Positions 2,659 to 52,250 of a DNA stretch of 64,000 bases are shown here, one piece after another. Numbering within the stretch: position 1 is the first letter of the stretch; each line of letters starts with the position of its first letter. The notes under the pieces were generated by a model that was not told the DNA's origin, did no database searches, and saw only the letters and a program-made list of their open reading frames with translations. Both the position numbers and the translations under genes were made by a program. Location of the stretch: the NCBI GenBank assembly GCA_011037195.1, contig JAAEAF010014533.1, forward strand, positions 1 through 64,000, read 5' to 3'. The DNA is from Triatoma infestans. Its lineage: Eukaryota > Arthropoda > Insecta > Hemiptera > Reduviidae.

Positions 2659-2913
2659 AATTGCAAAGCCAGTACTTCACGTATCGCCCATCTTCAGGAT
2701 GCGTTTGTCAGACAGTGTGATAACACAGACTTGCACAGAGCAAATTTAGTTTATACACTCTGTTCATTTTATACTTCACAGTGTATAAACTGAATTTGCT
2801 CTGTGCAAGCCTGTGTTATCACAGTGACTGACAAACGCATCCTGAAGATGGGCGAACGCCCAAAACCAGTCGATAATCACAAAATGAAGCAGGCTACCAC
2901 AGAAAATGTCTGT
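2659..2913. mobile_element. Palindromic element, hammerhead family, copy 1 (left arm truncated)
   Basis: Two arms of about 75 bp are inverted repeats of each other: left 2685-2760, right about 2782-2858, around a ~20-bp centre. The right arm continues outward to about 2912 and ends AAAATGTCTGTGA. The left arm stops inside what would be stem II of the hammerhead motif, directly after CGTAT at 2684. A 22-bp stretch (TGCAAAGCCAGTACTTCACG...) just left of the element recurs at about 3217-3239. The reading frames through it (e.g. 2539-2793) have no coding features. Confidence 0.8.
2838..2875 (+). ncRNA. Hammerhead ribozyme motif, mutated core
   Basis: Stem I strand CATC (2838-2841), core CTGAAGA (2842-2848), stem II GGGC-gaac-GCCC (2850-2861), then AAA where GAA is required (G12 to A at 2862), stem III ACCAGT, cleavage base C (2871), and GATA. 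The G12 change and the weakened stem III make activity unlikely. It is a decayed relative of the copies at 4,266 and 52,163. Confidence 0.6.
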
Positions 2914-4195
2914 GATGCCTTGATTATTTTTTTATCTTTCGAATTTTTATTAGCAGTAATGTATTTCATCCTCTAATAGCATATATTGGATATAACATTA
3001 ATAAAAATCAGTAACAAGTCAAGAGCATTTAAATCAAGAGAAAATTGACAATTTCTGCATTCGGCAGCAAAATACTGGTAAAAAAAAGAGGCACTAAATC
3101 ACCTACGTGAATTTGGGTCCATAATGCTGGAAAATATCTACATTTTTGCTATCGCCAAGTTTCAGCCTACCTTCAGAATGTTTTGATAAACAGTGAGATA
3201 TAATCGCTTTGTAGAATGCAAAGCCAGTACTTCACGTATAACACAGCAAGAAGAATGCAGCCAACAACATAACGACCAAGCACGTGCTTCCATTATAGAA
3301 CGTGTTCCCACTTTAACTAAAAATTTAGGATTAAGAGGATTCCGTGATACAGCGGCGAACTTCTAAAAGACTAAATTATATCTACTTCAAATACTAATGA
3401 AAACAAATTTAACTTCTGTGATTCCTATTTTTTATTTTTTGGAAAATACTTCCAGTTAAATGTTATCATTATCTGCTTCCCTTTAAGTGCACGTATAAAC
3501 CGAGAGATTATCTGTTAAATAATATAAAACAGATAACAACGTTCAATTATTAATTAAATAAATTACAAGCAATATTATATTTTAAGATATAAAGTTTATG
3601 TTTTGCTAATTTAGTATTCTCTGAAATAATTATCAACATACAAAATGTAAAGGTATCTTATTTAATTTTGCCTTTTCATAATGTGTTTTATGTTAAATCC
3701 TTTTGGTAGTACTAATTACGTTGCTGCTATTTGTGTCTTTGGTAAACTAAATTAAATCAACTTGTGTACATAGGAAACAAAGTCCACGTAAATTAAAAAT
3801 ACCTTTCAGGTTTCCATATAACACAAGAGTTGGATATATTGATATCATAAATAAATTTATATGAGGTTCCAGGAATTCAGCAGATTACTAATGATAGGTA
3901 AAGGACGGCTGATTTCTAAACATGGACAAAATTTTCCACCTTCTACGATCCTCTAGCTTATATTAAGTTACCCCTTATATGATTTATGATTTTCATTTAT
4001 TTATAGACTCTTAGTCCAATTGGTTTTATTTTCTTTCTTCTTCGTTAATTTTTTATAAACGTAGTTATTTCTACATTCAACAAGATTATTCTTAACAAAA
4101 TCTATATTATATCAAAGAAAATAAATTACGTTAAACAAAGCTAAGGTCATAAAAATTTCCACGCATAAAACGTAAAACTGGTAAGAATAACCTGA
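2914..4195. other. Non-coding stretch with one decayed palindrome-family remnant
   Basis: No supportable gene. At about 3150-3215 there is a weak, heavily diverged copy of the hammerhead-palindrome arm: GCCTACCTTCAGAATG followed by TTTTGATAAACAGTGAGATA. The rest is AT-rich with nothing I can assign. Confidence 0.5.
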
Positions 4196-4265
4196 AAAAA
4201 ATCTGGTGTAAAACACTCACCCAACTCAGAGACATTTTCCATGGTAGCCTGCTTCATTTTGTGGT

Positions 4266-4303
4266 CATCAACCGGTTTCGGGCGTTCGCCCATCTTCAGG
4301 ATG
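4266..4303 (-). ncRNA. Hammerhead ribozyme motif (complete core, minus strand)
   Basis: Read on the minus strand: CATC (stem I), CTGAAGA (core C3-A9), one extra T, stem II GGGC-GAAC-GCCC, GAA (12-14), ACCGGT (stem III, self-complementary), T at the cleavage position 17, then GATG, which pairs perfectly with CATC. All invariant core residues are present. Position 17 is U rather than the preferred C. The tiny palindromic stem III is typical of hammerheads that work best as dimers. An extra nucleotide between A9 and stem II is known from a viroid hammerhead, so it does not exclude activity. Confidence 0.7.
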
Positions 4304-4322
4304 CGTTTGTCAGACAGTGAGA

Positions 4323-5261
4323 TGTAATGTCATATCAATGTCAAGTGGCTCCAGCCAGCCGCTATCTTCACAAAAGATAACAAGAAGAAAGGATAATTTA
4401 CAACTAGTGGCCCCAGCCAGCCGCTGTCTTCTGGACAAGAGCCGCGCCAAACAAAAGCCTTTTCAAAACAAGGGTCAATACACACGGTCAAAGCAAGCAC
4501 CGCTAAAAGAATCATTATTGTACAGAAGCCACCTGGCCGATATTCCTTCATACAAGGGTCAATACACACGGTCAAAGACAAGCACCGCTAAAAGGATCAT
4601 TATTGTACAGAAGCCACCAGGCCGGTATTCCTTCATACAAGGGCCAACAAACAGTCAAGGCTACCAGTCTTTGAAAATCACCGATGGGCGACCATCTGTT
4701 GCCAAATCTGGCCACTGACCTAAATTACACTGGTCACCGAACTGACCAAGGTCGGCACACTGCGAGAGATGTCTTAGTGTGAGTACTACTTACACACCTG
4801 GCAATGTGTGAGTAATACTAATATAAACTTCGCCGCACTGGAGGAGGGGATCATTATATCATTATAGTTTCAACGAGCATTACAGCTTCAACGATCAGTA
4901 CAGCAGCAGTTTCGCGAGCGCGTCCCTATACAAGGTTTAACTTATAATTATTATCATTCAATTAAACATTTTATAGTTGTGCATCTTAGTTTTATCTACT
5001 TAAATCATTTTAAATTATTTGTAGTTTTATCTCTTTAAATTATTTATTTACTTATATCATTTCATATTAATTGTAGTTACCAATTGACACATTTAAATTA
5101 TTGTTAAAATATAGTCTATTTTTGTAAATTCAGTGTTCGTATTTCAAGTAATAACTCTCTAAAAATCTCTAAACTAGCTTCCGCCTATTCAACATATCAA
5201 GTCCCTCTTCAAGACATCTGAACTCCATTACCTCTGGAATCCGATAACTGATTCCAATACA
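4323..5261 (+). mobile_element. Solo LTR, 939 bp, with 4-bp target duplication
   Basis: It begins TGTAATG and ends CAATACA (imperfect inverted termini TGTA...TACA), and is flanked on both sides by GAGA (4319-4322 and 5262-5265). Excising it leaves a single GAGA and reconstitutes sequence matching the paralogous uninterrupted element at 2700 bp. It holds a 2-copy tandem repeat (4469-4637), a duplicated CCAGCCAGCCGCT block (about 4352 and 4425), and no coding sequence. A single LTR with a target duplication implies LTR-LTR recombination that removed the internal region. TG...CA with a 4-bp duplication fits Ty3/gypsy or BEL-type elements. I cannot say which. Confidence 0.8.
4469..4637. repeat. 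84/85-bp tandem repeat, 2 copies plus partial third
   Basis: Units begin CAAGGGTCAATACACACGG at 4469 and 4553, with a partial copy at 4638. They lie inside the solo LTR. Confidence 0.9.
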
Positions 5262-5391
5262 GAGATAACACAGACTTGCACAGAACAAATTCAGTTTATA
5301 CACTGGACTCCGAGTCAGTGTATAAAGAGAGTCAGTGTATAAACTAGATTTGCTCTGTGTAAGTCTGTGTTGTCACACTGTCTGACGAACG

Positions 5392-5429
5392 CATGCTGAA
5401 GATGGGCGAACGCCCAAAACCGGTCGATG
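5392..5429 (+). ncRNA. Hammerhead ribozyme motif, mutated core
   Basis: Same layout as the other copies: CTGAAGA 5396-5402, stem II 5404-5415, stem III ACCGGT 5419-5424, cleavage C 5425, and GATG. G12 is A (5416) and the stem I base next to the core is mismatched (CATG). Probably inactive. Confidence 0.6.
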
Positions 5430-5570
5430 ACCACAAAATGAAGCAGGCTACCACGGAAAATGTCTCTGATGCTTTCCAGCTCTGCGGAACCAACAACCAC
5501 AACAACTCATCCAACTATCTGTTACTGTAATTTACATAATTGTAATTGACTAATTCTATTCTAACGTATA

Positions 5571-6999
5571 ATTCTTACTGATGTTTAGTTGTCTTCAATT
5601 AATATGAATTGAACAATCATAACTTTAATATACGACTTTTTTTTTGAGGAAAGCATTACTTCCCACTCCCTTAAAACAAAAAGGAGGGGTAACTCCATTA
5701 AATGGATTTTCTTGGAAAAGGAACTTTCAGACAAAAGTGGATAGGTCTCTTTATATGTATAATTAGCACACCAAGTTTAATGAAACCTAGTGGTAATTTT
5801 TGAAGTAGCACTTCCGGGTCAATCGATTTTCATCAAATTCAATATTTTGAAGATAAAATTTATAGTTCTTTGAATGTGTAGTTGACATATTATTATTATG
5901 TTGCAGCCGTTTTCGACAAAATTGCAAAAAGGGGGAAAAAAAAACAATAAATAAGCACAACCCAGGTATAAAAAAGGCCACATATCTAGCCATTTATAAA
6001 AAATAGACTCTGTAGACACCCTTAAAGAAAATTGAAGGAATGAAGAGGGCAATACAGCGATTACAAAGAGAGATAGTGCAATAACGATAGCAGCTATCAA
6101 GATCGGAGACATTCATTGATAGAGCGAATAAGACATTTATTTATTAATAACTATAGACTGGAAAGTGAAATAGAGTGAATCTAGGCACATGTTGAGATTG
6201 TTGGAAATGAGGTTGCTATGTGTTGTCAAGGGAAAAAAATCACAGATAAGCTGTTAATTTTGTCCGGTCATTTTGCAGAAATAAGTTCCGAATGCAAGAA
6301 AATAAATGAGAATAAGAATAAAGCAATGCAACAAGATTAAGGGAAACATGATGATACATACTAACTAGAGAGAATAGAAAACAATTAACTTTACAATAGA
6401 CTATAAAATAACACAGATGGAAGAGTTCGACATTACTTACATAGGTATCATATAATAGAATATACAATCCACAACGTACTTATGATAAAATGACCATTTG
6501 AGACAAAACTGGGACCATCTAATTGACGACTGTCCACTACTGATGCGTCCAAAAAGAGACTTAATGCAATAATTTAACAACGGCAGGACACGACTGGCCA
6601 CTATCCAAGAAGAAGATTACCTCTTATCTCTAAAGTTTTGTCATAATATATTGTTAAATTTCTTACGAAAACTGAAATAGATTTTTTTTTTTTAATTATT
6701 TTATGCTTCATCATTAGAATTTAAAAAAATGTTATACATTGTATAGTACATGTTAAGATTATTTTATAATCAAATTCATTTCAGCACGGGTACTATGGAA
6801 TGAAAATACAACACACCCTGTACCATTCTCTAGAAAATACTTTTTCAGATTCAGGGGACATCAAAACATGTATTTCCTGTGAAAACTCGATATAAAAAAT
6901 TTGACATTTTCGCAGTACTTCATCCTACCAGTAGTTAGAGAAAGTAATAAACTAAAAATAAACAAATGACAACATATATATATATATATATTTTGGTAA
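5571..6999 (-). repeat. Old, fragmented family A copy (about 5640-6960)
   Basis: Recognisable family A blocks lie in minus orientation. They include CACTTCCGGGTCAATCGATT near 5810, the GTGTAGTTGACATA block near 5875, GCCGTTTTCGACAAAATTGC near 5905, and near 6858-6955 the end block with GGGGACATCAAAAC and TTAGAGAAAGTA. Between about 5990 and 6780 I see no clear family match. The copy is much more diverged than those at 15.6, 35.6 or 40.9 kb. A (TA)n run lies at 6976-6991. Confidence 0.6.
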
Positions 7000-7263
7000 A
7001 AGTTTTCAACTAGCAATAATCGTACCTCAGGAGACCTTCATTGGTTAAGATATTGCCACTGCGCAAGTATTAAAAGATCACGTTCTTCTCCTGGACTTAG
7101 TGAAAAAAAAAGTAGACTCAAGAAAGATTGTGCTAAAAAGTTCGAAAGAGAAATGGGAGTAGAGACTGAGCTTGGTAGAATTACAATAAAAGAACTTCTT
7201 GAAAACGTATAAGAGCTAAAAATCCAAATCGGTACACTTCAAGAGGAGAATAAAATTCTTAAA

Positions 7264-7887
7264 ATGACCGTCGAGAATTTGAAGAAGAAAAATAATTTGT
7301 TAGAAAAAAAAATGGAATTAATGGAAAACGATTCACGTAAAAATAATCTTATTTTCAAAGGTCTAGATAATTTGAAAGTTGCTGATAATGAAATTATACT
7401 TAATTTTTGTAAAGAAATTTTGGAAGTATCAGTCTCCACGCACGATATATCTAATGCATTTAAGTTTAATATTGGAAATAGTGGGAAATGTATATGGAAA
7501 GTCACTTTCAATCAACACGAAATTGTATCAATCATTTTAAAAAATACAAATAAGTTGAAAGGTACTGGCTTTTACATTGATCGCGACTATTCACCTATAG
7601 TTATGTCTAGGAGGAAAGCGCTGCTGCAATACAGGAAAGAAATTTTACAGCGAGATAAGTCTAAAAGAGTTTTATTGAGAAGAGACATTTTATTTGTGGA
7701 TGGTGAGAAGTACTTCTGGGATGATGAAGAGAAAATAATAAAACCGTATATTAGTGGAGAGTTGAAGAATCAAGGTTCTGATTTAGTTCAGGGGGCAGGA
7801 AAATCTGTATCATCTTTTCTATCTGTTCTCGGTCCAAGTACAAGTTCACAGGAAAAGCCGATTCAAGACAAAAATTTAAAAAAATGA
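7264..7887 (+). CDS. LINE-B ORF1 protein (coiled coil plus RNA-binding-like domain)
   Basis: A 207-residue frame. Residues 1-25 form a charged heptad-like coiled coil rich in K/E/L. This is followed by RKNNLIFKGL, a motif typical of LINE ORF1 proteins at the start of their RRM-like region, and a basic block near residues 117-140 (MSRRKALLQYRKEILQRDK). ORF1 proteins of this kind bind element RNA and help form the ribonucleoprotein. The frame continues upstream of the ATG with coiled-coil-like sequence but is cut by TAA at 7210-7212, so the true ORF1 start was probably further 5' (near 7080). The stop overlaps the next start as ATGA at 7884-7887, a layout suited to termination-reinitiation of ORF2. 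Confidence 0.75.
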   Translation: MTVENLKKKNNLLEKKMELMENDSRKNNLIFKGLDNLKVADNEIILNFCKEILEVSVSTHDISNAFKFNIGNSGKCIWKVTFNQHEIVSIILKNTNKLKGTGFYIDRDYSPIVMSRRKALLQYRKEILQRDKSKRVLLRRDILFVDGEKYFWDDEEKIIKPYISGELKNQGSDLVQGAGKSVSSFLSVLGPSTSSQEKPIQDKNLKK

Positions 7888-10435
7888 GAAAGTTCTGTCA
7901 GAATAACTCCATTATAAACGGTAATAAATTAATTAATGTTCTTAGTTATAATGTTGTAGGTATTAAGGATAAAGTTAAAGATTTATCTTGTGTTAATTTC
8001 ATAAATCAATATGATATAGTTTGTTTAAGTGAAACTTTTATTGAGGGAAAAGATACGAATGTATATATATGTTAAATATTTTCAAGGGTTTAAATTATTA
8101 TGGATACCAGCGTTAAGATTTGCCTATTATGGGCGGGCTAAAACAGGTTTAATATTATGTTGTAAATTAGAATTATTTTCTGAAGGTATATGTAGTTTTA
8201 TCAAATTGGGTGAAATGGATGTAATTGAGGTTAAATTTAATGCAGTTGAAAAGTTATATCTTTCGCTTGTATATTTAGGGAAGGAAAGCATTAATAATTT
8301 AGAGCAGGTTATTATGAATTATAATCATTTAGAATTTTTAGTATTGGGGGATACGAATGGAAGAATAAGAGAGAGTCAACCTATTGATGTAGATATTTTG
8401 AATTTAGATGTCTGTTCTAAGCGGCGAGTTTCAAAAGATAAATTGTTAAATACTGAGGGGAAAAAAATATTAGAACTTCTTGATGATCAAGGCTGGAGAT
8501 AATACCGGTGATTTCACTTTTATTAGTGGCCGGGGGTGCTCGGTTATTGATTTGGCAGCTATTTCTAAAAATTCTGTAACTAGAATTAAGGATTTTCTTG
8601 TTAAAAATGCAATATGGTCTGATCAAATGGGTATTGAAGTTAAGATAGAACTAGATTTTGTAGAAAAGAATGATGATTATCTGCCTGTCCGGTCTAAATT
8701 AAGATGGAATACATCTTTTTCTGACCAAAACAGAAGGAAATTGGATGAGTTGGCTGTTTTAAAATCCGAAAATTATAATAATGAGGTGGATGAATTAAAG
8801 TCTATGATTAGACAAAGTGCAGGTAATAGGAACGGGAAAGTTCGCCCCTTTAAACGTGTTCAACCTTGGTTTGATTTTCAATGTTTTCATATTCGAGCTA
8901 GAGTTCTCAACGTAAATAAAATTCAGGCCGACAGAAATATTTAGCGGAAAAAAAGGAAATTTAAAGAGTTATGCCCTAACAAGCGTCAACAATATTTTGC
9001 GGAAGCAGTGGAAAGTATTTTAAAGGTTAGAGATGCCTCTGAATTTTGGTTGCAAGTGAATAAATTCAAGCCTAAGGGTTTGAATTATGGCGGCAGTATA
9101 AGTATGAAAGAATGGGTTACTTACTTTTCTCGACTTTTTAATCCGGTGGTTAACTTATCGTCAGTTCTGTATACTAAATCCGAAATAACAGATGAATTTC
9201 TCAACCAACCTTTCCCTTTAGAAGAATTGCAGCCGATATTATCCAGGTTTAAAAATAATAAGGCATCGGGTTCTGATGGAATCGCATTCGAATTTTATAA
9301 GTACTCCCCGCAACCCTTTCTCCAGCTAGATTCATCGCTGTTAAATGTTTTCTTTCAGGAGGGTTCAGTCCCAGAGCGTTTTAATGAAGCAGTGATAGTT
9401 CCTCTCTTTAAAAAAGGTGACACAAACAAGGTCACTAATTATTATAGGTGTATTGTGGGTAAACAGCAAGAATTTATTATGTGAGGAACAGGCGGGATTT
9501 AGGGAAAGCTATTCAACTATAGATAATCTATTTATACTTACGAATGTTATTAGACTGAAGTGGCACGAAGGTTGGAATAGAATCTATTGTTTTTTTGTGG
9601 ACTTGAAGTCTGCATTTGATTCTGTGGATAGGAGGGCGTTATTATTTAAACTTACACAGCTAGGAGTGTCGAACAAATTCACTAGAGCTATAGGAAGCCT
9701 GTACAAAGATACTAAATTATCTGCAAGGGGGAAGAGTAGTTGCTCACTTATACTAGTTCTGGGATGCAACAAGTTTGCAACCTTAGTCCATTATTATTCA
9801 TCATTTATATCAATGATCTTAAAGCCTTATGGTGGAATTATGCTGAAAAGATACAGTCTGAAAATATTTGCTGATGACATTGTTATTTTGGAGGTTAAGC
9901 CGGATATACTTCAGAATATGATAAATGAAGTGGAGAGCTACACGGTTACTTGGAATCTCAAACTGAATCTGACGAATCGAAAGTGAAGATTTTTTGTAAT
10001 AAAATGATATTCAGGAAAAGGGGCGGTAGACTTAGAAATGATGAAATATGGAGATACGGGAGCCAGGTAATTGAAGTAGTAAATTCCTATAAATATTTAG
10101 GAGTGGAACTTACGCCTTCTTTGTTATTTAGCCAGTTTTGGAATAGAAAATCTCGTCAAGCTTTGCTAGGCGTTAATACAGTTTGGTCGAATTTAATAGT
10201 AAATAAATATACTTTCTGCAAAGTATGATCTGTTTAAGGCCGTATTTCGCTCCATCCTTACTTATAGTTGCCAGGTTTGTGGATACCAATGCTCGGACCA
10301 TATAGAAAGGGTACAGAGAATAAGGCGTTAAAAGGTACATTTCGTGGTATTTATCGTCAGCTTTCCTTGGATGTTGATTACACGCTAAAGACCCTAAACA
10401 CTGAGGATATAGGACTATTAATAGCCATTTTCTCC
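7884..10435 (+). pseudogene. LINE-B ORF2: endonuclease and reverse transcriptase, frameshifted
   Basis: The frame opens at 7884 with an APE endonuclease N-terminus (NVLSYNVVGIKDK, DIVCLSETF). It shifts frame near 8060. The GDTNGRI box (the GDFN motif of the family) is near 8350. Frame shifts again near 8500 to GDFTFISGRGCSVIDLAAIS; the following SDH motif reads SDQ (near 8620), so the catalytic His is lost. TAG at 8942 interrupts the linker. The RT shows NNKASGSDGI (near 9260), IVPLFKKGD, then an apparent internal deletion near 9450. It continues with EEQAGFRESYSTIDNL, FVDLKSAFDSVDRRAL (near 9600), a frameshifted NLSPLLFIIYINDL, and catalytic FADDIVIL (near 9868). The thumb has VVNSYKYLGVELTP (near 10,080). 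The element encoded copy-and-paste retrotransposition; this copy cannot. Confidence 0.85.
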
Positions 10436-11830
10436 GTCAGATGTTCAATATGCTATAAAACGTCTCTCCCCAAAGAAAACTCCCGGATATGATCTTATAA
10501 CCCCAACCATTCTTCGAAATCTTCCCAAAAAAGCCGTGGTCTTCCTCACTTCCATATACAACGCGATTCTCCGAACCACCTATTTCCCAATTCTGTGGAA
10601 GTTCTCTATTATTTGTCCCATTCTAAAACCCAAAAAACCTCAACATCTCCCCTCATCCTATCGTCCCATTAGCTTACTCTCTGTCTTAGCCAAAATATTT
10701 GAAAAACTCATCCTTAAACATATCCTACCAATCCTTGAAGTTTCCAATGTTATCCCAGACCATCAGTTTGGATTTAGACGCCACCATCTACCATACAACA
10801 AACTCACCGCGTTGTAGACACCATTGCATCCTCCCTTGAGAAGAAGGAGTGCTGTTCGGGGGCTTTCCTTGATGTGAAGCAGGCCTTCGATCGAGTATGG
10901 CACCCCGGGCTGCTCTGGAAACTTAAGGGCATCCTTCCAGCCACTTATTATCTTATCCTAAAATCTTACTTATCCGATAGGTATTTTCAAGTACAAATCG
11001 GATCATCTTTCTCTCCTTTCAATCATATCGAATCTGGAGTGCCGCAAGGCAGCATTCTAGGTCCTATCCTTTATTCAGTATACACTGCAGACATCCCAAC
11101 ACATCCTGATACCATCCTTCTCACCTATGCGGATGATACTGCTATCCTGTCTTCCAATAATGATCCCGTAACAGCCCATAGAAATCTACAAACCCACCTC
11201 TCCTCCCTAGAAAATTGGTTCAAAAAATGGGTCATTAAACTTAATGAAAATAAGTCCCAAAACATTACCTTCACTCTACGTCGCATTACTCTTCCCCCAG
11301 TCTACTACAACTTAATTCCCTTACCAGTGGTCAACGTTGCTCGCTATCTTGGGCTTTACTTAGACCGAAGACTTACATGGAATCCTCATACAAGACTGAA
11401 AAGACTAGAACTAAACAGACGCTTTCGACAACTTAAAAGACTACTGGACAACAGATCTAAACTCTCCCTAGACAACAAAAGACTAATTTATACATCTATT
11501 TTAAAGCCTATCTGGGCGTACGGAATAGAACTATGGGGTTCAACCAAACGCTCAAATCTCCAAAGACTCCAATCCCTACAATCCAGAATCCTCCGTAACA
11601 TTGTGAACGCTCCTTTTTACGTCTCCAACCGAACCATACATACTGATCTTAATATACCGTTCATTGCTCAAGTCGCCCAAACCCGTTACAGGAAATTCCA
11701 TATTAACCTACAGACTCACACAAACCCTTTAATTCAACACCTGTCTTCCCGAACACTTCCTAATAACCCTCCTAGACGTCTTAAAAGACAATGGCCTCGT
11801 GATCTCCTCTCAAGTGAAGAGAGTGAATAG
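10436..11830 (+). pseudogene. Jockey-like reverse transcriptase, one frameshift
   Basis: The frame reads through RT fingers and palm: KKTPGYDLITP near 10,475, SSYRPISLLSVLAKIFEKL near 10,655, DHQFGFR near 10,760. It then breaks near 10,788, consistent with a single-base loss in the Q-Q-T-H-RVV region. It resumes as DVKQAFDRVWHPGLLWKL and runs open to TAG at 11,828-11,830. The second block (318 residues from 10,874) has SGVPQGSILGPILYSVYTAD, catalytic TYADDTAIL (near 11,130), VARYLGLYLDRRLTW, and the GIELWG thumb motif. Motif order and spacing match jockey-clade RTs. With one visible lesion this is among the youngest RT copies here. Confidence 0.9.
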
Positions 11831-52004: not shown

Positions 52005-52250
52005 TGAGCGAAGTTATTCCAGTTTGGTTCCGCAAAGCTGGAAAGGATCAGAGGTATTTTCCGTGATAGCCTGTTTCTTTTTGTGGTCATCGAACGGTTT
52101 CGGGCTGTATCAACTAAATTTTCTCTGTGCAAGCCTATGTTATCACAGTCTTTAGACAAAAACATCCTGATGATGGGCAAACGCCCGAAACCGGTCAATG
52201 ATCCCAAAAAAGAAGTAGGCTATCACGGAAAATATCTCTGACGATTTCAT
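52005..52250. mobile_element. Palindromic element, hammerhead family, copy 3 (centre deleted)
   Basis: The left arm (about 52,019-52,105) reads CCAGTTTGGTTCCGCAAAGC, then GTGGTCATCGAACGGTTTCG. The right arm (about 52,115-52,245) reads GTGCAAGCCTATGTTATCAC, ACATCCTGATGATGGGC, CCGAAACCGGTCAATGATC and GGAAAATATCTCTGACG. Arms are inverted relative to each other. Most of the inner left arm is gone. Confidence 0.8.
52163..52200 (+). ncRNA. Hammerhead ribozyme motif, canonical core
   Basis: Stem I strand CATC (52,163-52,166), core CTGATGA (52,167-52,173), one extra T, stem II GGGC-AAAC-GCCC (52,175-52,186), GAA (52,187-52,189), stem III ACCGGT (52,190-52,195), cleavage base C (52,196), and AATG (52,197-52,200). 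AATG pairs with CATC at three of four positions. Core residues equal the hammerhead consensus CUGAUGA...GAA...UC. Cleavage would fall after 52,196. Stem I is weakened next to the core, so activity must be tested. Confidence 0.72.

What the first reader, a model, noticed from the sequence alone, without database searches (positions are those of the whole stretch)
52163..52200. Hammerhead ribozyme motif with a canonical core in a palindromic repeat
CUGAUGA, a perfect 4-bp stem II, GAA, a self-complementary stem III ACCGGU and the cleavage base C occur in the right order and spacing, with flanks able to form stem I (CAUC/AAUG, 3 of 4). A second copy (4,266-4,303, minus) has perfect stem I and core, with U at the cleavage site. 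Two more (2,838 and 5,392) keep the fold but have G12 mutated to A. Independent copies preserving the same secondary structure argue against chance. From memory, hammerheads of this compact form are known in Penelope-like element pseudo-LTRs, and an extra nucleotide after A9 is tolerated in a viroid hammerhead.
Basis: partly seen in the sequence, partly recalled or inferred. Interest (0 to 1): 0.88.

Follow-up and report, generated by a model that had tools for sequence, protein, structure and literature searches.

The report
Self-cutting RNA motif in a retroelement
The window holds decayed copies of a Penelope-like jumping element that carries a small self-cutting RNA (a hammerhead ribozyme); such ribozymes are already known in this element class, but the way copies inserted in this genome hints that the RNA really cuts itself in living cells.

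Summary
The motif is real: core, stem II, self-complementary stem III and cleavage base stand at 52163-52200 (+), with three sister copies in the window and none in 100 shuffles. It is not a solitary ribozyme gene. All four are fragments of one high-copy repeat with the anatomy of a Penelope-like element (PLE): hammerhead, an ATG that begins at A9, two alternative outer ends about 30 nt apart, head-to-head insertions with short target duplications, and relatives that run into the C-terminus of a GIY-YIG endonuclease. A covariance model built only from other hammerhead families of this genome finds the sister copy at 4266-4303 as best window hit (E 0.008); 52163 is weak (E 1.6). The 52163 copy has lost a stem I pair at a CpG and lies in a palindrome that would sequester it, so it is probably inactive. 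Minimal hammerheads in PLEs are known. Less expected: 19 of 21 classified palindromes pair one long with one short end, and genome-wide 212 pattern matches mark arms starting exactly at the cut, against 55 and 120 two bases upstream and downstream. That hints at in-vivo cleavage before reverse transcription. New member of a known kind.

The parts
52163..52200 (+). hammerhead copy: stem I 52163-52166/52197-52200 (CAUC/AAUG), CUGAUGA 52167-52173, extra U 52174, stem II 52175-52178/52183-52186, GAA 52187-52189, self-complementary stem III 52190-52195, C17 52196, predicted cut 52196^52197
   Evidence: CM R1 E 1.6, rank 5 of 16
52106..52248 (+). right arm of the head-to-head pair, short end (q141)
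52024..52105 (-). left inverted arm: long end outward, inner end at the 3' strand of stem II (q77)
52173..52175 (+). ATG made by A9, the extra U and the first G of stem II; inferred remnant of the element's ORF start
   Evidence: sequence; analogy with PAc in PMC11167929; not shown by a full-length copy
4266..4303 (-). hammerhead copy with perfect stem I, A7 and U17
   Evidence: best window hit of CM R1, E 0.008
4226..4323 (-). single PLE arm around it, short end (q134)
2838..2875 (+). hammerhead copy with G12 to A (predicted dead)
   Evidence: CM R1 E 2.4, rank 7 of 16
2782..2921 (+). right arm, short end (q140)
2684..2757 (-). left inverted arm, outer end at the stem II loop (q74)
5392..5429 (+). 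hammerhead copy with G12 to A (predicted dead)
   Evidence: not among the 16 hits of CM R1
5336..5507 (+). right arm, long end (GCTTTCCAGCTCTGCGGAACCAACAACCACAACAAC)
5264..5302 (-). left inverted arm, only the part upstream of the hammerhead (q1-39)

Best explanation
The four window copies are 5'-end stubs of a Penelope-like retroelement ('family A'). SHOWN: the repeat carries a minimal type I hammerhead motif; its insertions end at one of two sites about 30 nt apart downstream of the hammerhead; many insertions are head-to-head palindromes flanked by one target duplication, usually with one end of each kind; longer relatives run into a GIY-YIG endonuclease C-terminus. INFERRED: element RNA starts about 60 nt upstream of the hammerhead; its ORF begins at the ATG formed by A9-U-G; the element protein nicks both target strands with an offset of about 8-13 bp, each 3' end primes reverse transcription at one of two internal RNA sites, and the two cDNAs are joined at their inner ends. 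INFERRED, with some genomic support: two RNA copies pair through ACCGGU, cut after C17, and the 3' product starting at GAUGACC is sometimes the template, which leaves arms that begin exactly at the cut. The copy at 52163 is a decayed fossil and probably does not cleave.
For: Motif beyond chance. Genome: 8369 + 8142 matches of CTGATGA-N6-24-GAAAC against 890 + 849 for the reversed pattern. 46 copies from the window and 20 loci share one layout, with two outer ends. Structure-only scan of 327,467 bases: 53 hits in six stem-sequence groups (G-U variants of one family pooled); 0 in 10 Markov replicates; scrambled cores 0, 0, 0 and 1. Covariation over four families: 95% of cells paired, score 1.0, 0 of 500 shuffles reach it (three of the four rows were found by a scanner that demands pairing). 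CM R1, built without family A: best window hit 4266-4303, E 0.008; in 16 loci 17 hits at E<=1, 16 of them family A hammerheads (of 26 known there) and 1 another family. Family B: RT + GIY-YIG ORF next to its own hammerhead. Family A body runs into an endonuclease C-terminus: tblastn 1e-6 to P0013 and 4e-5 to P0012 with C-terminal queries in a tiny database, 9e-4 and 3e-4 with whole proteins. 24 head-to-head pairs, 0 direct tandems; 19 of 21 classified pairs long/short, p 1.1e-4; 17 of 24 with flank repeats scoring >=8 against 4.2% of mismatched flanks. Matches for arms starting exactly at the cut: 68 and 144 against 19 and 36 two bases upstream and 39 and 81 two bases downstream.
Against: No complete family A ORF was found; PLE membership rests on anatomy plus about 48 codons of endonuclease C-terminus (one stop in the best copy), and the downstream hammerhead of copies L053-L055 was not fetched. 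The window's own three palindromic loci show no recognisable target duplication (scores 4, 5, 4). 52163 scores only E 1.6 with R1, the 5392 copy is not found, and 10 of 26 family A hammerheads are missed. In 16 unselected dispersed copies the core mutates about as fast as stem I (6 of 128 against 3 of 112). Predicted folds: monomers of the 4266 and L021 copies form stems I and II, but CUG of the core pairs with CGG of stem III; of three family A dimers only that of 52163 shows two stem IIs plus the 6-bp stem III, the other two fold as an extended duplex. Part of the excess at the cut has other causes: 11 of the 68 read CCT before GATGA, which fits a deletion between GATGA repeats. In the Anolis PLE, hammerhead mutants insert normally in vitro and no RNA-seq ends were seen at the cut (PMC11167929).
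Confidence: 0.88

Rival explanations
1. Chance resemblance: a palindromic DNA repeat that happens to spell a hammerhead.
For: Rfam finds no hammerhead; stem III has no loop; stem I is 3 of 4 in this copy.
Against: Zero in shuffles, zero in Markov controls; six groups with unrelated stems keep the core; CM R1 built without this family finds it.
Confidence: 0.02
2. A non-autonomous retrozyme: tandem hammerhead units that spread as small circular RNAs.
For: Short, very numerous copies without ORF; type I core; weak helix III is also seen in retrozymes (PMC7761336 passages).
Against: Retrozyme units stand as direct repeats (recalled, and in line); here 0 direct tandem pairs among 81 arms, but 24 head-to-head pairs; the ends match the PLE 'tail' pattern; longer relatives carry an endonuclease C-terminus.
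Confidence: 0.05
3. A fold-back DNA transposon (MITE) whose inverted arms contain the motif.
For: Palindromes flanked by one target duplication.
Against: A single-arm insertion with target duplication (L042); variable inner ends as in 5' truncation; unequal outer ends; endonuclease C-terminus upstream.
Confidence: 0.02
4. Head-to-head palindromes arise by snap-back self-priming of one cDNA rather than by priming from both target strands.
For: Self-priming is proposed for rotifer Penelope (PMC3846280 passages). Arms of one pair are more alike than arms of different pairs (mean 90.6% against 86.7%, 16 of 24 pairs; partner is best match for 8 of 32 arms, 1 expected).
Against: A copied-back arm would not be expected to end about 30 nt short at a fixed site, yet 19 of 21 pairs have one end of each kind; both strands are cut and extended by PAc in vitro.
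Confidence: 0.3

Closest known systems
Poseidon PLE of Anolis carolinensis (PAc), PMC11167929 (parts 1 and 2 of 4 of the text read; passages)
   Same: Hammerhead overlapping the ORF start (C3 and G8 before the start codon); cut 26 nt into the ORF there, 24 nt counted from the ATG here; two reverse-transcription start sites = optional 30-40 bp tail, the AC-rich outer one at +111-118 there, the long end at about +102 here; both target strands cut and extended.
   Different: PAc is known by its complete protein; family A only by stubs and an endonuclease C-terminus. In vitro PAc showed no difference in start site between strands; here 19 of 21 classified palindromes have one end of each kind. No RNA ends at the cut were seen in PAc RNA-seq; here arm starts are in excess there.
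Penelope families of the rotifer Adineta vaga, PMC3846280 (passages only)
   Same: Inverted pLTRs, most often head-to-head; 31-bp tail optionally on one of the inverted pLTRs; 8-10 bp target duplications.
   Different: The word hammerhead does not occur in that main text; the inversion is explained there by self-priming on an antisense template.
Minimal type I hammerheads of PLEs (Cervera and de la Pena 2014; Lunse, Weinberg and Breaker 2017; neither text held; known here through citing passages in PMC7761336)
   Same: Minimal type I core lacking a proper helix III, thought to cut as dimers.
   Different: Whether those papers report the invariant extra nucleotide after A9 could not be checked.
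Type I retrozymes of animals (PMC7761336 passages)
   Same: Type I core, weak helix III.
   Different: Repeats of 150-300 bp between hammerheads; no direct tandem arrangement seen here.

Membership tests
Hammerhead ribozyme, type I | CUGANGA and GAA core, H17 | tested here: met
   met by 52163 and 4266; the other two window copies have G12 mutated
Hammerhead ribozyme, type I | Stems I and II conserved by pairing, not sequence | tested here: met
   stem I of the 52163 copy 3 of 4
Hammerhead ribozyme, type I | Stem III hairpin within one molecule | tested here: not met
   6-nt self-complement without loop; a full stem III needs two molecules. Minimal PLE variants are said to lack helix III too
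Hammerhead ribozyme, type I | A9 directly followed by helix II | tested here: not met
   one extra nucleotide in 53 of 53 hits, family B beside an RT/EN gene included
Hammerhead ribozyme, type I | Self-cleavage after N17 | not testable with these tools
   only indirect: excess of arm starts at the cut
Hammerhead ribozyme, type I | Rfam covariance hit | tested here: inconclusive
   none at gathering or E<=10, and none in six loci with family A, B and other hammerheads
Penelope-like element | RT + GIY-YIG ORF | tested here: inconclusive
   family A: only the endonuclease C-terminus; family B of the same genome has an 809-codon frame with both domains
Penelope-like element | pLTRs in inverted, head-to-head arrangement | tested here: met
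   24 pairs among 81 arms
Penelope-like element | optional ~31-bp tail at one end | tested here: met
   short end about q134-141, long end about q156-169
Penelope-like element | short target duplications | tested here: met
   17 of 24 pairs; not recognisable at the three window pairs
Retrozyme | direct tandem units with hammerheads | tested here: not met
   0 direct tandem pairs among 81 arms

The most novel reading that the evidence does not exclude
The PLE hammerhead cuts in vivo and its 3' product is a regular template: arm starts peak at the cleavage bond. In the same reaction the two target strands are primed at two different RNA sites, one per strand, which makes the one-long one-short palindromes. 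Genomes rich in PLE stubs would then be a readable record of ribozyme activity and of two-sided target-primed reverse transcription.
Probability: 0.4. Interest if true: 0.75.

Novelty: new member of a known kind. Interest (0 to 1): 0.45.

Why it matters
[quoted passage not shown] A genome with more than ten thousand matches lets two open points be tested by counting junctions: whether the RNA is cut before it is copied, and whether each target strand uses its own start site.

Tried and rejected
Rfam at gathering threshold and at E<=10: no hammerhead in the window nor in six other loci. GIY-YIG profile search (38 matches, 150 of 1157 candidates scored): the 11 loci fetched carry one other PLE family (B); of five more, L049 and L052 are also family B, L050 and L051 belong to another PLE family, and L048 looks to me like a host SLX1-type gene (recalled, not searched). 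L009 has PLE coding remnants, but they lie next to another hammerhead (family D) and are not continuous with the family A copy there. Phage records: 17 weak matches, best E 3, none covering more than 7% of the query; viral contigs with P0013: no confirmed relative. Protection of dispersed copies: not seen. Not answered and given up: a pattern for family C, a DNA query further up the family A body, protein P0013 against the own genome, and two further controls around the cut, start q87 and q95. Flank-repeat search for single arms scanned about 970 bases and has no control; matches of 9.5-10.5 that make no sense also turned up there (L010, L020), so only L042 (13.5) and the wide pair in L019 (12) are taken as clear, L012 (9.5) and L024 (10.5) as weak. 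Pair counts: loci were partly chosen because one search listed a minus/plus neighbour, so the share of paired copies is not unbiased; the kind of end was not looked at when choosing. Left out: L001-L008 and L029-L032; L048-L058 were fetched later. L003 and L006-L008 were dropped as redundant.

Full report
Both strands were read and the motif with up to three mismatches occurs four times in the window and never in 100 dinucleotide shuffles. The window is eukaryotic (U4 snRNA match) and belongs to a 941-Mb assembly without a name here. Two of the 16 relatives of the family B protein bear a name, both insects, so an arthropod is likely; this was not established.

The motif is a repeat, not a gene. 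In the own genome the pattern CTGATGA-N6-24-GAAAC has 8369 + 8142 matches against 890 + 849 for the reversed pattern. In the window and 20 loci, 46 copies with enough flank line up without gaps into one layout: about 60 nt upstream part, CATC, CTGATGA (or CTGAAGA), one extra T, GGGC-GAAC-GCCC, GAA, ACCGGT, C, GATG, then a short tail. The majority stem I is CATC/GATG, a perfect 4 bp. In 16 copies not chosen by the search pattern, non-CpG core positions are changed in 6 of 128 cells and non-CpG stem I positions in 3 of 112, so single copies decay without visible protection. In all 46 the figures are 6 of 368 and 21 of 322, but 30 of these were selected by their core.

That it is a hammerhead rests on comparison with other families. 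A scan that fixes only CTGANGA, GAA, a paired stem II, a 4- or 6-nt self-complement and at least 3 of 4 stem I pairs finds 53 hits in 327,467 bases, 0 in 10 Markov replicates, and 0, 0, 0 and 1 with scrambled cores. They fall into six groups with unrelated stems: A (GGGC/GCCC, with G-U variants), B (GATTATG/TATAATC), C (GGAT/ATCC), D (GGACACC/GGTGTCC), E (GACAA/TTGTC), F (GGCAAA/TTTGCC). All 53 have exactly one extra nucleotide after A9 (T 33, A 19, C 1). Covariation over one member each of B, D, E and F: 95% of cells paired, score 1.0 against 0.35 in shuffles, 0 of 500 reaching it; slid registers reach 0.35 at most. D, E and F were picked by a scanner that asks for pairing, so this is partly built in; B was found through its RT/EN gene. 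A covariance model from those four alone gives 4266-4303 as best window hit (E 0.008), with 52163 fifth (E 1.6) and 2838 seventh (E 2.4) of 16; the copy at 5392 is not among them. In 16 loci it gives 17 hits at E<=1: 16 are family A hammerheads, out of 26 known there, and one is another family. Rfam sees none of these, the one beside the family B gene included.

The host element is Penelope-like. Family B of the same genome has an 809-codon open frame with RVT_1 (29.3 bits, just under its cut-off of 29.6) and GIY-YIG (28.1 bits, over cut-off), with its own hammerhead GGTA-CTGAGGA-A-GATTAT...ATAATC-GAA-ACGT-T-TACC before it and a decayed one after it (L029:827 and 3841). For family A, a stretch upstream of the hammerhead in L022 gives 41 matches, L022 itself included, with 40 of 984 candidates scored. 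Three of the five such loci fetched (L053-L055) and L058 share a sequence that reads as the C-terminus of a PLE endonuclease: in L055 tblastn with the last 120 residues of P0013 and P0012 gives 1e-6 and 4e-5, and with whole proteins 9e-4 and 3e-4; L058 gives 0.005. In L058 this coding remnant is joined head-to-head to a family A tail arm. A full family A ORF was not found. The ATG made by A9, the extra T and the first stem II G opens a frame (MGERPKPVDDHK...) through the tail of majority copies; [quoted passage not shown] In family B the ORF starts about 130 nt beyond the hammerhead, so this overlap is not a rule of the genome's PLEs.

Insertion anatomy. blastn with three natural copies over 36 sources gives 81 arms. 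24 pairs stand head-to-head, none as direct tandems; one tail-to-tail neighbour (L043) is two insertions. Outer ends come in two kinds, short (about q134-141) and long (about q156-169). Of 21 pairs with both ends classified, 19 have one of each, 2 are short/short, 0 long/long; of 33 single arms 16 are long, 15 short, 2 unclear. With an even chance, 19 or more of 21 has p 1.1e-4. Flanks of 17 of 24 pairs share a direct repeat scoring 8 or more, against 4.2% of mismatched flanks; 14 of 24 score 9 or more, against 1.1%. Such a palindrome is therefore one insertion. A wider pair with a flank repeat (L019) and a single-arm insertion with a flank repeat (L042) came, with weaker cases in L012 and L024; that scan had no control. 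The three window pairs show no such repeat (scores 4, 5, 4), as expected if old.

Mechanism. In vitro, PAc cuts and extends both target strands and starts reverse transcription at two internal sites that bound the genomic tail (PMC11167929). Priming from both strands, outer ends first and inner ends joined, yields just the head-to-head form with target duplication. The study saw no strand difference in start site; here 19 of 21 palindromes have one of each, which suggests that the two strands take different sites in vivo. The rotifer paper notes the tail on one of the inverted pLTRs and prefers self-priming (PMC3846280 passages). Arms of one pair are somewhat more alike than arms of different pairs, which snap-back or a shared RNA source would both give.

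Does the ribozyme cut in vivo? Two truncated arms begin exactly at the first base after the cut (L022 9334, L058); four begin before it (L046, L019, L011, window 52024), one about two bases after (L013) and four in the tail (L028 twice, L043, L017). Three more rows (L016, L035, L017 2541) are diverged relatives that go on upstream and were not counted. To test this genome-wide I counted places that match the family from position k onward while differing at all four bases before it. Subfamily A1: 68 at the cut, 19 two bases upstream, 39 two bases downstream. Subfamily A2: 144, 36, 81. Many of the downstream counts look like single-base indels in intact copies, GTCG or CGA(C/T/G) before TGACC: by eye 12 of 39 and 39 of 81. 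Of the 68 at the cut in A1, 11 read CCT before GATGA and may be deletions between GATGA repeats; of the listed part of the 144 for A2, 6 do. The fixed words are 25, 23 and 21 bases for upstream, cut and downstream, and the letter sets differ, which lowers the upstream and raises the downstream count somewhat. The raw excess at the cut is 1.7-1.8-fold over downstream and 3.6-4.0-fold over upstream. Only three positions were measured, so this is support, not proof.

The 52163 copy. Its left partner covers the second half of the hammerhead and the tail; RNA across both arms is predicted to fold as one long hairpin (-95.8 kcal/mol for 225 nt, no shuffle control) that takes up the hammerhead. With the broken stem I pair, self-cleavage there is unlikely. 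A dimer of the isolated 43-nt piece is predicted to form both stem IIs and the 6-bp stem III; dimers of the 4266 and L021 copies and of the family B copy are instead predicted as extended duplexes, so the energy model does not by itself favour the active dimer.

Literature. Searches listed papers (58 none); PMC11167929 was read in parts 1 and 2 of 4 and by passages, PMC3846280, PMC7761336 and PMC10085705 by passages; the others only as listing. Minimal hammerheads in PLEs and their cutting as dimers are known through citing passages. In what I read and in those listings I saw no report that insertion ends fall at the hammerhead cut; the two main hammerhead-PLE papers are not held, so this is weak.

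Noticed in passing
window 6951-7070 (-): U4 spliceosomal RNA match, 78.9 bits, above its gathering score; whether it is a gene or a retro-copy was not checked.
   Followed up: no
window 2662-2684 and 3217-3239: Exact 23-bp direct repeat that encloses the 2684-2921 PLE pair and, at about 3140-3205, what looks by eye like a further decayed inverted PLE arm.
   Followed up: partly
window 4468-4658: Two overlapping copies of a roughly 108-bp unit, 92% identical.
   Followed up: no
window 7213-11830: Open frames that look by eye like remnants of LINE-type retrotransposons, among them a 350-codon frame at 10778-11830; not searched.
   Followed up: no
L009:4363, L011:5058, L013:8749 and minus 1403, L025:5159: Further PLE-type hammerheads with other stems; those in L009, L011 and L013 have an ACGT self-complement, so several element families with their own ribozymes seem to live in this genome.
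   Followed up: partly
L046 minus 646; L016:8595; L035:120: A diverged relative (family C) with GGAT/ATCC stem II in L046 and, by eye, a tail similar to that of family A.
   Followed up: partly
L048: Frame that looks like a host SLX1-type GIY-YIG nuclease (recalled resemblance).
   Followed up: no
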